Shown here piece after piece: positions 25,774 through 30,578 of a DNA stretch of 64,000 nt. This DNA comes from Candidatus Kinetoplastidibacterium crithidiae (GTDB taxonomy: Bacteria > Pseudomonadota > Gammaproteobacteria > Burkholderiales > Burkholderiaceae_B), in the NCBI GenBank assembly GCA_019278155.1, contig JADMLC010000005.1:61980-125979 (forward strand). The letters are read 5' to 3'. How positions within the stretch are numbered: the stretch's first letter is position 1; every line of letters starts with the position of its first letter. Under the pieces are notes generated by a model. That model had not been told where the DNA came from, did not search any database, and worked only from the letters and a program-made list of their open reading frames with translations. A program made the position numbers and the translations under genes.

Positions 25774-26371
25774 AAAGAATCTTCGCATAAAGGAAGATAT
25801 CGGTTATATCTTGCATAGTATTTCTTGGAAGGAAACATCTTTAATCGTTAAGGTTTTTTCTCGTGAATATGGTTGTATAAATATGGTGGCTAAGGGGGCT
25901 AAAAGACCTTATTCTCAGCTTAGGCCTGTTTTATCTAAGTTTACTCCATTATTATTAAGATGGACTGGAAAATCTGAAGTTAAAACTTTGGTAAAGGCAG
26001 AATTAAATGGAATAATTTCTTTACCAGGGAAATTTTTAATATTTGCATGGTATTTGAATGAGTTAATTTTATCTTTCTTGCCAAAAGAAGATTCTCATCC
26101 TATTTTATTTGACGCATATCATAATGCATTATTAAAATTTTGTGATCATCACGAAAAAAATAGTAAAAATATTTCCAGTATATTAAGACGTTTTGAGTGG
26201 ACTTTGCTGAAGGAAATTGGGTATGGTTTTGATCAAGAAGAACCTGATTTCTGTAATCTCTTAGAGAGTTCTTTTATCAATCAAATTATGTCTGATCGTA
26301 TAGAGACATATTTATATGGAAGAACTTTGCATAGTAGAAAAATTTTAAAAGACCTAAAGCATTTTATTTGA
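25766..26371 (+). CDS. recO: DNA repair protein RecO (overlaps the era end)
   Basis: GYILHSISWKETSLIVKVFSREYGCINMVAKGAKRPYS; position after era. Confidence 0.85.
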   Translation: MNKKNLRIKEDIGYILHSISWKETSLIVKVFSREYGCINMVAKGAKRPYSQLRPVLSKFTPLLLRWTGKSEVKTLVKAELNGIISLPGKFLIFAWYLNELILSFLPKEDSHPILFDAYHNALLKFCDHHEKNSKNISSILRRFEWTLLKEIGYGFDQEEPDFCNLLESSFINQIMSDRIETYLYGRTLHSRKILKDLKHFI

Positions 26372-26423
26372 AATAAAGCCCACTGTTATTTTAAATAAAA
26401 TTATTTGTGGGCTATTATTTCTC

Positions 26424-27140
26424 TTAGTCTTTTTTATTATTTAAAAAGCCTATTATAATCAATAAGTTACTGAATACATTATATATATCCAAATATAAAG
26501 CTAAGGTTGCAGATATATAATTTGTTTCTCCATTATTTATAATTCTGTGAATATCAATAAGCATAAAAGAAGAAAAAACTATCATTGATAGCATACAGAT
26601 TGTTAACGTCATAGCACTCATCTGTAGAAAAAGATTCGCAATTATAGATAATAATAGCACTACTGCACCTATAGTCATAAATCTTTCAAAACTAGATAAA
26701 TCTCTTTTTACAGTATGTGCAATAAAATTCATAAAACAGAATATTATTGCAGTACCCCCAAATGCCATTGTTACTATTTTTGAGCCATTATGCATTCCTA
26801 TTACTATTCCTAATAGTCTTGAAAGCATGATTCCCATAAAAAAAGTAAATAATAGTAAAAATAATATGCCAGTAGAATTATTTTTATTTTTCTCTATGCA
26901 GGACATTAGAAAAAAAGATCCTACAAAAAATACTAAAGTGGATAATCCTGGATTAGATAGCATTCCATAATTTATACCAGAAAGTATTCCGAATATAGAT
27001 CCTAAAACAGTAGGTATCAAAGATATAGCCAGTAGTAAATAAGTATTTTTTAGGATCTTATTGTGTTTTAATATATTGTTTTTTGTAGCTATGCTACTGT
27101 TATTATCAAATTTAGAGTATTGATAATTATTCATATGCAA
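26424..27140 (-). CDS. Bax inhibitor-1 / YccA family membrane protein
   Basis: Seven predicted TM segments; AFGGTAIIFCFMN, FSSFMLIDIHRIINNGETNYISATLALYLDIYNVF. Confidence 0.85.
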   Translation of the reverse strand: MHMNNYQYSKFDNNSSIATKNNILKHNKILKNTYLLLAISLIPTVLGSIFGILSGINYGMLSNPGLSTLVFFVGSFFLMSCIEKNKNNSTGILFLLLFTFFMGIMLSRLLGIVIGMHNGSKIVTMAFGGTAIIFCFMNFIAHTVKRDLSSFERFMTIGAVVLLLSIIANLFLQMSAMTLTICMLSMIVFSSFMLIDIHRIINNGETNYISATLALYLDIYNVFSNLLIIIGFLNNKKD

Positions 27141-27668: not shown

Positions 27669-29156
27669 TCAATTTGCATTTGTTTTATCTAATAAGAATT
27701 GTGTAATCAATGCAACGGGTCTTCCAGTGGCTCCTTTTTTATTATTCTTGTTCCAAGCTGTACCCGCTATATCAAGATGAGCCCATTTATATTTGTCGAC
27801 AAATTCTGATAAGAAACATGCAGCAGTTATACATCCTGCAGAATAACCTCCGGTATTTTTAATGTCTGCAAAATCTGACTTTAATTGTTGTTTATATATA
27901 TTATCTAGTGGCATTTCCCATACGTAATCTAAAACCTTTTTGCTAGATGAAAATATTAAATCAGCAGTTTCTTTATCATTGGAGAATAGAGCTGTTCTAA
28001 TGTTTCCTAATGATACAACACATGCTCCTGTTAAAGTTGCCATATCTATTACAAGACATGGATCATATTTTTTTGCATAAGTTAGTGCATCACATAACAC
28101 TAGTCTTCCTTCTGCATCTGTATTTATTATCTCTATTGTTTTACCAGACATGCTTTCTACTACATCGCCAGGTTTATTGGCGCTTCCACTAGGCATGTTT
28201 TCACAAGCAGGTATTAATCCAATAATATTATGATTGACTTTAAGTTTGGCAATTGATTTCATTATGCCTAACACTGCAGCTGCTCCACACATGTCATATT
28301 TCATTTCTTCCATTGAAGAAGATGGTTTAAGAGATATTCCTCCAGAATCGAAAGTTATTCCTTTGCCTATAATTATAATCGGTTGTGCTTTTGTTCCATT
28401 AGGCTGATATATTATTTCTATAAATTTCAATGGTTCATCAGATCCTTTTGCGACAGACATAAAAGATTTCATGCCAATTTTGCTAACATCTTCAATATCT
28501 AATATATTAGTTTTTATAGATGAAAATTCTTGCGCTAATTTTTTAGCTTCATTTGCTAAATAAGTTGGCGTGCAAATATTACTAGGTAGATCTCCCAATT
28601 GTTTTGCCAAATATATTCCTTCAGATATTGAGATTCCTTCTAATAAACATCTATCTATATCTTTTAGGTTATTATTATTTGTCATAAACACAATTTTTTT
28701 TAATTTTACATTTTTTTCAACATCTTTTATTGTAGTAATATATCTGTAGGCAGATCCTTTTGCTGTTATTATGGAATTCTTAAGAAATAATATACTGTGT
28801 TCTGAGTCAGCTTCTAAAGCAATAGTTGAGTAGCATTCTTTTATTTGATGTTTAATACACGTATTAATGAATGATTCTTCAGCTATATTATGTTCTTCTA
28901 GTGAATATTTATCGTTATTGCCAAGACCTATAATTACAATGCTTTTTGCTTTGATATTTGGTATGTTGTATAAAACGATACTATTTCCTAGTTCTGCATT
29001 GAAATTATCTAAAAGTTGTTTTATAAAACCATTGCTGTTTTCATTTATTTCTTTTGCAGATGAAGTTAGAATGTTATTTTTATATATGCCTATAGCTAAT
29101 GATTCTGTTTCTATATTCGATATATTTATAGTTTTATTTTCTATATAAATTTCCAT
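27669..29156 (-). CDS. pepA: leucyl aminopeptidase
   Basis: GKGITFDSGGISLKPS, NTDAEGRLVLCDAL. Confidence 0.96.
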   Translation of the reverse strand: MEIYIENKTINISNIETESLAIGIYKNNILTSSAKEINENSNGFIKQLLDNFNAELGNSIVLYNIPNIKAKSIVIIGLGNNDKYSLEEHNIAEESFINTCIKHQIKECYSTIALEADSEHSILFLKNSIITAKGSAYRYITTIKDVEKNVKLKKIVFMTNNNNLKDIDRCLLEGISISEGIYLAKQLGDLPSNICTPTYLANEAKKLAQEFSSIKTNILDIEDVSKIGMKSFMSVAKGSDEPLKFIEIIYQPNGTKAQPIIIIGKGITFDSGGISLKPSSSMEEMKYDMCGAAAVLGIMKSIAKLKVNHNIIGLIPACENMPSGSANKPGDVVESMSGKTIEIINTDAEGRLVLCDALTYAKKYDPCLVIDMATLTGACVVSLGNIRTALFSNDKETADLIFSSSKKVLDYVWEMPLDNIYKQQLKSDFADIKNTGGYSAGCITAACFLSEFVDKYKWAHLDIAGTAWNKNNKKGATGRPVALITQFLLDKTNAN

Positions 29157-29218: not shown

Positions 29219-30012
29219 ATGTCAATTTTTAAAAAATTATTTTTTTATAAAAAAATAAAAATTTTATAGTTGCTTTATCGATAGATTTTATATTTTAAAT
29301 GGTCTTTTTCTTATTATAACTGCATTACTACTTATAATAATGATTGTTTCATGATTTATATCAGTTATAAGAACTATAATGCATAGTTATAGAGATTCAT
29401 AAATGATAATTTTTATTAGTAGTGGTCTGTCTTTAAATAATTTCTTTAATCCAGTATTAACTATTTCTATACCTATATCACTAATAATTATGATATTTTC
29501 TTTATTTTTTTATCACTAATTGCCTATAGGAAGATAGAATAATTTCATAATTATGATTTAGTAAATTTTAATTTACACAAGATATCGTCTGGCAATTTGA
29601 TGAGATTTTATAATTGTAATAAAATATTTTTTACTGATAATATAAATAAAAAGTTTGTTTGGATGAATTTTATAAAATTAGTGCTAATTCTGGTTCTTTT
29701 ATAAATAATAAAAAAGGAATTTCTATAAAAAGACATTTTTGAAAAAAGTAATTTATCTTTGTCTTATGTAGTAGGGCATATTCCCATGCCTATAGTTTCA
29801 TTAAATTTGTCACTTCTAGCTATTCTATTAGGGGAAATAAATGCTAGGAATAAATTTATTAATTTTTTATAGTTGTATTGTTAGCATTAGGATATCTTAG
29901 TAGTGTTGGTTTATTTCAATTGCTGATTTTACAAAATATTATTGGGATTGTATCTGGTTTAATTTAGCCTCATATTTTAATTTATTTACTATATTTAGTA
30001 TTAGTAATATTT
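29219..30012 (+). pseudogene. lptF: decayed LPS export permease lptF
   Basis: Plus-strand fragments interrupted by stops/frameshifts: MSIFKKL; YRDS*MIIFISSGLSLNNFFNPVLTISIPISLIIMIFSLF; HKISSGNLMRFYNCNKIFFTDN; SYVVGHIPMPIVSLNLSLLAILLGEINARNKF (29774-29872 core). Collinear with betaproteobacterial LptF (YRESEMVVWFASGLSL...; KVTAGQF; WRISLPLAALNLALLAIPLGAVNPR). Divergent from pepA as expected for lptFG. Confidence 0.8.
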
Positions 30013-30044
30013 AATATATTACTATAGAAATTAAAATTTCTTTA

Positions 30045-30578
30045 TCAATAACATATTCTGCGAGATGTTATATATTTTTTTGACCAATAGTTGCTATTTA
30101 TGTTATCAAATTTGATTTGCTTGCCCGTTCTTGGAGCATGTATAAATATATCATCTTTTACATAAATTCCAACATGTAATTGATTATGTTTTGTTTTGAA
30201 AAAAACCAAGTCCCCAGTTCGTATTTTTTTCTTAGAAACTGAATTTCCAATTTTAATTAATTTCCTAGTGGTTCTTGGTAGGTGTAAATTTAACGATTTT
30301 TTTGCACAGTAATATACTAAACCACTACAGTCAAATCCTTTTTTAGGTGATGATCCTCCATAGACATATTTTTTATTTAATTGTTTTAACGCCTCTTTTG
30401 TAAATATAATGTTTTTTTCACTGCTTTTTTGTAAAACTATTTTTTGTGGAATATAAACTTTTTTTCTTGGGTTTTCTTGTATGCAACAAGAAGATGTATT
30501 AATACAAATAATTAATACAAATAATTTCTTGATTATGATTCTTATGCTAGAAATGTTCAAAATAGTGTAGTCTATCAA
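30045..30578 (-). CDS. NlpC/P60 family cell-wall peptidase, probable lipoprotein
   Basis: KKYVYGGSSPKKGFDCSGLVYYCAKK, GDLVFFKTKHNQLHVGIYV, FIHAPRTGK. Confidence 0.88.
   Translation of the reverse strand: MIDYTILNISSIRIIIKKLFVLIICINTSSCCIQENPRKKVYIPQKIVLQKSSEKNIIFTKEALKQLNKKYVYGGSSPKKGFDCSGLVYYCAKKSLNLHLPRTTRKLIKIGNSVSKKKIRTGDLVFFKTKHNQLHVGIYVKDDIFIHAPRTGKQIKFDNINSNYWSKKYITSRRICY

What the first reader, a model, noticed from the sequence alone, without database searches (positions are those of the whole stretch)
29219..30012. Unannotated lptF pseudogene, with lptG apparently gone
The ~890-bp gap between pepA and the NlpC/P60 gene carries collinear, stop- and frameshift-ridden LptF fragments: MSIFKKL; YRDS*MIIFISSGLSLNNFFNPVLTISIPIS; HKISSGNLMRF; GHIPMPIVSLNLSLLAILLGEINARN. 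In one place a Glu codon position reads TAA. Established: LptF/LptG form the inner-membrane permease of the Lpt LPS exporter and are divergent from pepA in many proteobacteria. Inference: LPS export is being or has been lost, or LptFG is encoded elsewhere.
Basis: partly seen in the sequence, partly recalled or inferred. Interest (0 to 1): 0.7.

Follow-up and report, generated by a model that had tools for sequence, protein, structure and literature searches.

The report
LPS pathway lost, LptD kept
The gap holds the wreck of lptF, one gene of a lipopolysaccharide (LPS) factory-and-export line that this trypanosomatid symbiont has lost almost entirely, yet the last export protein, LptD in the outer membrane, is still intact here and in three other LPS-less relatives, which suggests it has a job other than handling LPS.

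Summary
Window 29219-30027 (+) is an lptF pseudogene, divergent from pepA: relatives' LptF matches it collinearly (tblastn E=1e-25; 70 bits against at most 22 in 300 shuffles). Against the closest intact copy it has five in-register stops (one is the Glu>TAA at 29400), six frameshifts and deletions of 72 and 187 nt.

The genome matches Ca. Kinetoplastibacterium crithidii of Angomonas ambiguus TCC2435. lptG is not expected beside lptF in this lineage. It lies on another contig and is also broken.

The whole pathway has gone: lpxC, lpxD, lpxA, lpxB and msbA are wrecks; lpxK and lptB are absent. Across eight genomes of the genus it is essentially intact in four and broken or absent in four, implying at least three, probably four, independent losses. 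LPS-gene loss in this strain pair is already published in general terms (PMC8229890).

The unexpected part: lptD stays open (755-778 codons) in all four LPS-less genomes, with dN/dS like surA/bamA and no consistent rate acceleration. In the window's lineage the LPS genes collected 38 disabling lesions in 4.7 kb; lptD has none (19 expected if neutral). Lol and Mla are also kept. I infer an LPS-independent job for LptD; its substrate is unknown.

The parts
29219..30027 (+). lptF pseudogene (whole relic, from the ATG of MSIFKKL to the position of the ancestral stop)
   Evidence: Collinear tblastn to LptF of G002, E=1.3e-25; DNA alignment to intact G002 lptF, 82% over aligned bases; shuffle control
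29400..29402 (+).
   Evidence: Codon alignment to G002
29346..29507 (+). Best preserved LptF piece, residues 68-121, 74% identical to G002
   Evidence: tblastn
29495..29650 (+). LptF residues 117-168, in another frame after a +2 insertion
   Evidence: tblastn, alignment
29650..29653 (+). Junction of a 187-nt deletion that removes codons ~168-230 (approximate position)
   Evidence: DNA alignment to G002
29650..29973 (+). LptF residues 231-342, frameshifted
   Evidence: tblastn
27669..29156 (-). pepA (intact), divergent neighbour of lptF and synteny anchor in all 8 genomes of the genus
   Evidence: ORF; homologues at 47-91% identity
30045..30578 (-). NlpC/P60-type protein gene (intact ORF), downstream boundary of the relic; name taken from the finding, not tested
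   Evidence: ORF list

Best explanation
Shown: the gap is a dead lptF gene. The symbiont (by assembly size and contig number, Ca. Kinetoplastibacterium crithidii of Angomonas ambiguus TCC2435) has lost LPS synthesis, flipping and inner-membrane export as one unit through accumulated frameshifts, stops and deletions. Shown: the outer-membrane component LptD escaped this decay in the window's genome and in three other LPS-less genomes of the genus. It is a full-length LptD with N-terminal beta-strand domain plus barrel, and its dN/dS is in the range of SurA and BamA. Inferred: inside a host cytosol LPS is dispensable and its genes decay once relaxed. The outer membrane is then a phospholipid and lipoprotein membrane maintained by Bam, Lol and Mla. 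LptD, without any LptB2FG pump, must do something that needs no LPS, most plausibly passing lipoproteins to the surface (as its Borrelia homologue does) or acting as an ungated barrel or channel.
For: lptF relic. Pathway profile over 8 genomes: LptF/G, LpxC (11), LpxA (15), LpxK (16), MsbA and LptB-type ATPases (34), gene-by-gene tblastn (38). All essentially intact in G001, G002, G004, G005; broken or absent in G000, G003, G006, G007. LptD over the Pfam cut-off with open frames in all 8. LptD lineage (nd/N)/(sd/S): 0.218 in G000 (LPS-less), 0.277 in G002 (LPS genes kept), 0.302 in G003 (LPS-less); SurA 0.23-0.33; BamA 0.26 pairwise. Decaying LPS genes in the G000 lineage 0.545, Fisher p=0.001 against LptD; 38 lesions in 4,660 nt against 0 in LptD's 2,334 nt, 19 expected, P=5e-9. 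LptD/control branch ratios 1.6-3.0 in LPS-less and 1.7-2.7 in LPS-bearing lineages. LptD conserved positions kept: 135-139 of 248 in LPS-less, 140-151 in LPS-bearing. Structure: pLDDT 75.6, matches solved LptD, E 4e-46. LolCE, LolD and MlaACDEF intact in G000 and G006. Literature: a Borrelia LptD homologue works without LPS (PMC13317210).
Against: The job of LptD is not shown. In G007 LptD dN/dS (0.241) is higher than SurA (0.121) and BamA (0.153) on the same branch, so some relaxation is possible. In G003 the decay is too recent for the dN/dS contrast (p=1). The LptD C-terminus is shortened in G003 and G007. LptE was not detected in any genome of the genus, LPS-bearing or not, so its fate is unknown. 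Lineage counts include time before the LPS genes died.
Confidence: 0.82

Rival explanations
1. LptD is simply slow to die: a relic not yet hit, with no present function.
For: G003 lost its LPS genes recently; LptD C-terminus trimmed in G003 and G007 and mildly raised dN/dS in G007.
Against: Zero lesions in G000 where 19 were expected under neutrality (P=5e-9); intact in G006 and G007, where LPS genes have vanished almost without trace; dN/dS 0.22-0.30, not near 1.
Confidence: 0.13
2. LPS is still made, with the missing steps supplied by host-nuclear genes (endosymbiotic transfer) or by genes in unassembled sequence.
For: Retention of LptD would then be trivial. At least one nuclear gene of Angomonas deanei is reported to derive from the symbiont (PMC12176269).
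Against: At least eight proteins, several of them inner-membrane, would have to be imported. Assembly 99.83% complete, and the wrecks are found in place, so the genes are not merely missing from the assembly. The host genome could not be searched here.
Confidence: 0.04
3. The breaks are sequencing or assembly errors, or poly(A)/poly(T) frameshifts rescued by slippage, and LptF is functional.
For: Single homopolymer frameshifts do occur in otherwise intact LPS genes of G001 (lptB) and G002 (lpxB).
Against: Here five stops, six frameshifts and deletions of 72 and 187 nt in one gene, with matching decay of six other LPS genes and independent, different decay in G003.
Confidence: 0.01

Closest known systems
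Reported loss of cell-wall/LPS genes in Ca. Kinetoplastibacterium crithidii strains (PMC8229890)
   Same: Same strains by assembly size; [quoted passage not shown]
   Different: The main text does not name lptF/lptG (no occurrence of 'lpt' or 'lpx'), does not present a whole-pathway loss repeated across the genus, and does not mention LptD. Its supplementary tables could not be read here.
Borrelia burgdorferi Lpt system without LPS (LptD homologue BB0838; PMC10353723, PMC13317210)
   Same: A diderm without LPS that keeps an LptD; no LptE found; BB0838 is essential and needed for surface lipoprotein display.
   Different: Borrelia keeps LptA, B, C, D, F and G; the LPS-less Kinetoplastibacterium genomes lack LptB, F and G, so LptD has no known energy source or periplasmic bridge.
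Paulinella chromatophore envelope (PMC12176269)
   Same: Symbiont or organelle that lost LPS biosynthesis and export genes.
   Different: There BamA and the bacterial outer membrane are reported lost too; here BamA (in the LPS-less genomes G003, G006, G007), Skp, SurA, LptD, Lol and Mla are kept.

Membership tests
LptF (LPS export permease, PF03739) | Sequence similarity to LptF along the gene | tested here: met
   Collinear tblastn to LptF of G002, G001, G004, G005; E down to 1.3e-25
LptF (LPS export permease, PF03739) | Match to the Pfam model over its cut-off | tested here: not met
   No PF03739 match at the window locus; only the C6 lptG fragments ring. Expected for a gene this broken.
LptF (LPS export permease, PF03739) | Position divergent from pepA | tested here: met
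   Same arrangement in G001, G002, G004, G005 (intact), G003 (broken) and Bordetella ansorpii
LptF (LPS export permease, PF03739) | Open reading frame that can encode the permease | tested here: not met
   5 in-register stops, 6 frameshifting indels, 72- and 187-nt deletions
LptD (PF04453), gene on G000 contig C9 | Barrel domain over Pfam cut-off | tested here: met
   216.6 bits against a cut-off of 22.4; best solved relative 7omm, E=2e-64
LptD (PF04453), gene on G000 contig C9 | N-terminal lipid-binding beta domain | tested here: inconclusive
   PF03968 only E=0.1, below cut-off; but the model shows strands through residues 58-200 and the fold search aligns full-length LptD, including 4q35 (TM 0.76)
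LptD (PF04453), gene on G000 contig C9 | Conserved disulphide cysteines | tested here: inconclusive
   The C-terminal CC pair is one Cys in the Angomonas symbionts and absent in the others, LPS-bearing ones included
LptD (PF04453), gene on G000 contig C9 | LptE partner | tested here: inconclusive
   PF04390 finds no LptE in any of the 8 genomes, LPS-bearing ones included; too divergent or absent
Borrelia-type LPS-free Lpt system | LptB2FG pump present together with LptD | tested here: not met
   LptB, F and G broken or absent as intact genes in the LPS-less genomes
Borrelia-type LPS-free Lpt system | LptD needed for lipoprotein surface display | not testable with these tools
   Needs an experiment; Lol genes are present

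The most novel reading that the evidence does not exclude
In LPS-less Kinetoplastibacterium, LptD has been kept as a stand-alone outer-membrane protein that works without LPS and without the LptB2FG pump, for example as a lipoprotein flippase coupled to Lol or as an open channel for exchange with the host cytosol.
Probability: 0.35. Interest if true: 0.78.

Novelty: new variant of a known kind. Interest (0 to 1): 0.52.

Why it matters
It is usually held that LptD exists to insert LPS, and why LPS-free diderms keep it is open. Here one bacterial genus gives a natural, repeated experiment: at least three losses of LPS synthesis and its inner-membrane pump, each leaving LptD in place. That makes an LPS-independent role of LptD directly testable in a culturable host, and it bears on how a symbiont's outer membrane is rebuilt on the way to an organelle.

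Tried and rejected
Naming the genus via a PepA scan of genome contigs: the genus is withheld there; only outgroups came back. Alves et al. 2013 (PMC3590767) and Luo et al. 2025 (PMC12065857) are not held. LptA/LptC/LptE: the Pfam models miss them in most or all LPS-bearing genomes, so their absence says nothing. Considered 'export lost but lipid A still made': rejected, because lpxC, lpxD, lpxA, lpxB and msbA are wrecks. Considered one shared loss in G000 and G003: lesions are almost all private; the few shared or near-shared frameshifts (lpxD position 1030, msbA position 1004) are in or next to homopolymer runs, and G002 is intact at those places. The grouping of G000, G002 and G003 is not resolved by my eight genes (53% support); the published 431-gene tree makes the two A. 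ambiguus symbionts paraphyletic. Two scripts for the shuffle control failed on parsing before the third worked.

Full report
WHAT IS IN THE GAP. Between pepA (27669-29156, -) and the next gene (30045-30578, -) lies 888 bp without a long ORF. LptF proteins from four relatives match it collinearly on the + strand; the closest, G002, gives E=1.3e-25 and 2.9e-13 over residues 1-342. Its best HSP scores 70 bits; 300 dinucleotide shuffles of the stretch reach at most 21.6. A DNA alignment to the intact G002 gene shows in-register stops at codons 51, 69, 85 (GAA>TAA, window 29400), 131 and 339, six frameshifting indels, and deletions of 72 and 187 nt. The PF03739 model itself does not ring at this place.

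WHICH GENOME. The window lies in an assembly of 803,286 bases in 13 contigs, 99.83% complete. A published assembly of Ca. Kinetoplastibacterium crithidii from Angomonas ambiguus TCC2435 has 803,474 bp in 14 contigs, and that of strain PNG-M02 has 816,901 bp, exactly the length of G003 (PMC8229890). The same paper gives 90-91% identity among the three crithidii genomes, as pepA shows here. From memory, the contig lengths of G001, G004, G005, G006 and G007 (820,037; 833,125; 822,140; 741,697; 810,172) fit K. blastocrithidii, desouzaii, galatii, sorsogonicusi and oncopeltii; I could not verify this.

lptG IS NOT EXPECTED THERE. In every genome of the genus with two PF03739 genes they are at separate loci, one beside pepA. 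In Bordetella ansorpii (L073) only lptF adjoins pepA, while in six other beta-proteobacterial loci tested lptF and lptG are adjacent. The separation is therefore probably older than the symbiosis. The lptG of this genome is on contig C6 (about 25,985-26,697, -) and is itself broken by deletions of 132 and 202 nt, frameshifts and a stop.

THE WHOLE PATHWAY IS GONE. I profiled the pathway in all eight genomes. LpxC, LpxD, LpxA, LpxB, LpxK, MsbA, LptB, LptF and LptG are present and essentially intact in G001, G002, G004 and G005. In G000 the genes lpxC (contig C2), lpxD, lpxA and lpxB (C1), msbA (C13), lptG (C6) and lptF (window) are wrecks, and lpxK and lptB are not found. In G003 lpxC, lpxD, lpxA, lpxB, msbA, lptB, lptF and lptG are wrecks and lpxK is not found. 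In G007 traces remain of lpxC, lpxD, lpxB and lpxK. In G006 almost nothing is left. FabZ, which sits inside the lpx cluster but serves fatty-acid synthesis (general knowledge), is intact in G000, G003 and G007; it was not found in the G006 stretches I read. WaaA is found only in G001 and G005, so G002 and G004 would make a Kdo-free lipid A precursor at most (inference).

HOW MANY LOSSES. The tree of seven other proteins places G006 beside the G001/G005/G007 clade with full support, and G007 inside that clade with LPS-bearing G001 and G005. The losses in G006, G007 and the crithidii group are therefore separate: at least three. G000 and G003 share almost no lesions, and LPS-bearing G002 is as close to each as they are to one another, so probably four. 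The published 431-gene tree, in which A. ambiguus symbionts are paraphyletic with respect to that of A. deanei, agrees. Two homopolymer frameshifts in LPS-bearing genomes (G002 lpxB, shared with G000; G001 lptB) suggest that slippage may be an early step, if they are not sequencing errors.

LptD IS KEPT. PF04453 finds lptD above its cut-off, in an open frame, in all eight genomes; after choosing starts, the frames are 755-800 codons. In G000 the protein matches solved LptD by sequence (7omm, E=2e-64). The AlphaFold model (mean pLDDT 75.6) has an N-terminal beta-strand domain followed by the barrel and matches solved LptD structures (E 4e-46; TM 0.76 to 4q35). Conserved positions of free-living relatives are kept as well in LPS-less genomes (135-139 of 248) as nearly in LPS-bearing ones (140-151). 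Lineage-specific (nd/N)/(sd/S) for lptD is 0.218 (G000), 0.277 (G002) and 0.302 (G003), in the range of surA (0.23-0.33) and bamA (0.26 pairwise). The six decaying LPS genes give 0.545 in G000, 0.336 in G003 and 0.198 in G002. In G000 the contrast is significant (p=0.001); in G003 it is not, because decay there is recent. In G000 I count 38 disabling lesions in 4,660 nt of LPS genes, after hand exclusion of alignment-end artefacts; lptD should have collected 19 and has none (P=5e-9). Branch lengths of LptD relative to controls show no consistent acceleration in LPS-less lineages (2.14, 2.96, 1.58, 2.29 against 1.67, 2.69, 1.97, 1.71). A mild sign of relaxation exists in G007, and the C-terminus is trimmed in G003 and G007.

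WHAT IT PROBABLY MEANS. Shown: LPS synthesis and its pump decayed while LptD did not. Also intact in G000 and G006 are LolCE, LolD and the phospholipid transporter MlaA, C, D, E, F, so an outer membrane with lipoproteins and phospholipids is still maintained; host phosphatidylcholine has been reported in symbiont fractions (PMC12176269). Inferred: LptD has an LPS-independent role. In LPS-free Borrelia burgdorferi the LptD homologue is essential and needed for surface display of lipoproteins, and in gamma-proteobacteria LptD binds lipoproteins handed over from Lol (PMC13317210). That makes lipoprotein display the leading guess, with an ungated barrel or channel as the alternative. Unlike Borrelia, these genomes have no LptB2FG (PMC10353723), so the mechanism cannot be the same bridge.

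NOVELTY. Loss of LPS genes in these two strains is published in general terms. No paper in the searchable library holds both Kinetoplastibacterium and LptD; that library is partial, and the supplementary tables of the 2021 paper and two key papers could not be read. The repeated whole-pathway loss with LptD left behind appears unreported, but I cannot be sure.

Noticed in passing
G002:C1 ~324000 (L154:5303-6498, -): lpxB of the otherwise LPS-complete G002 has a -1 frameshift in a poly(A) run, shared with G000: possible first step of loss, slippage-rescued gene, or sequencing error.
   Followed up: partly
G001:C1 ~74285 (L197:6747-7474, +): lptB of G001 has a -1 frameshift in a poly(T) run although all other LPS genes are intact.
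   Followed up: partly
G002 and G004 (whole genomes): WaaA (Kdo transferase) not found although lipid A genes are intact, so these would make a Kdo-free lipid A precursor at most.
   Followed up: no
L231:3731-8854 (G000 C8) and L233:3434-7770 (G006): A complete Mla set (F, E, D, A, C), followed by an ABC-2 type transporter ATPase, is kept in LPS-less genomes.
   Followed up: partly
G002:C1:532476-534058: A CydDC-type ABC exporter gene is split into two open frames (293 and 300 aa) in G002 only, suggesting another frameshift or an assembly error.
   Followed up: no
L028:6268-7314 (G004 lptF): LptF of G004 ends about ten residues early compared with relatives; otherwise intact.
   Followed up: no
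G000 contig C6, base 1: The contig starts at the first codon of cydA, just where lptC-lptA-lptB would lie, so the remains of lptCAB in this genome could not be read directly.
   Followed up: partly
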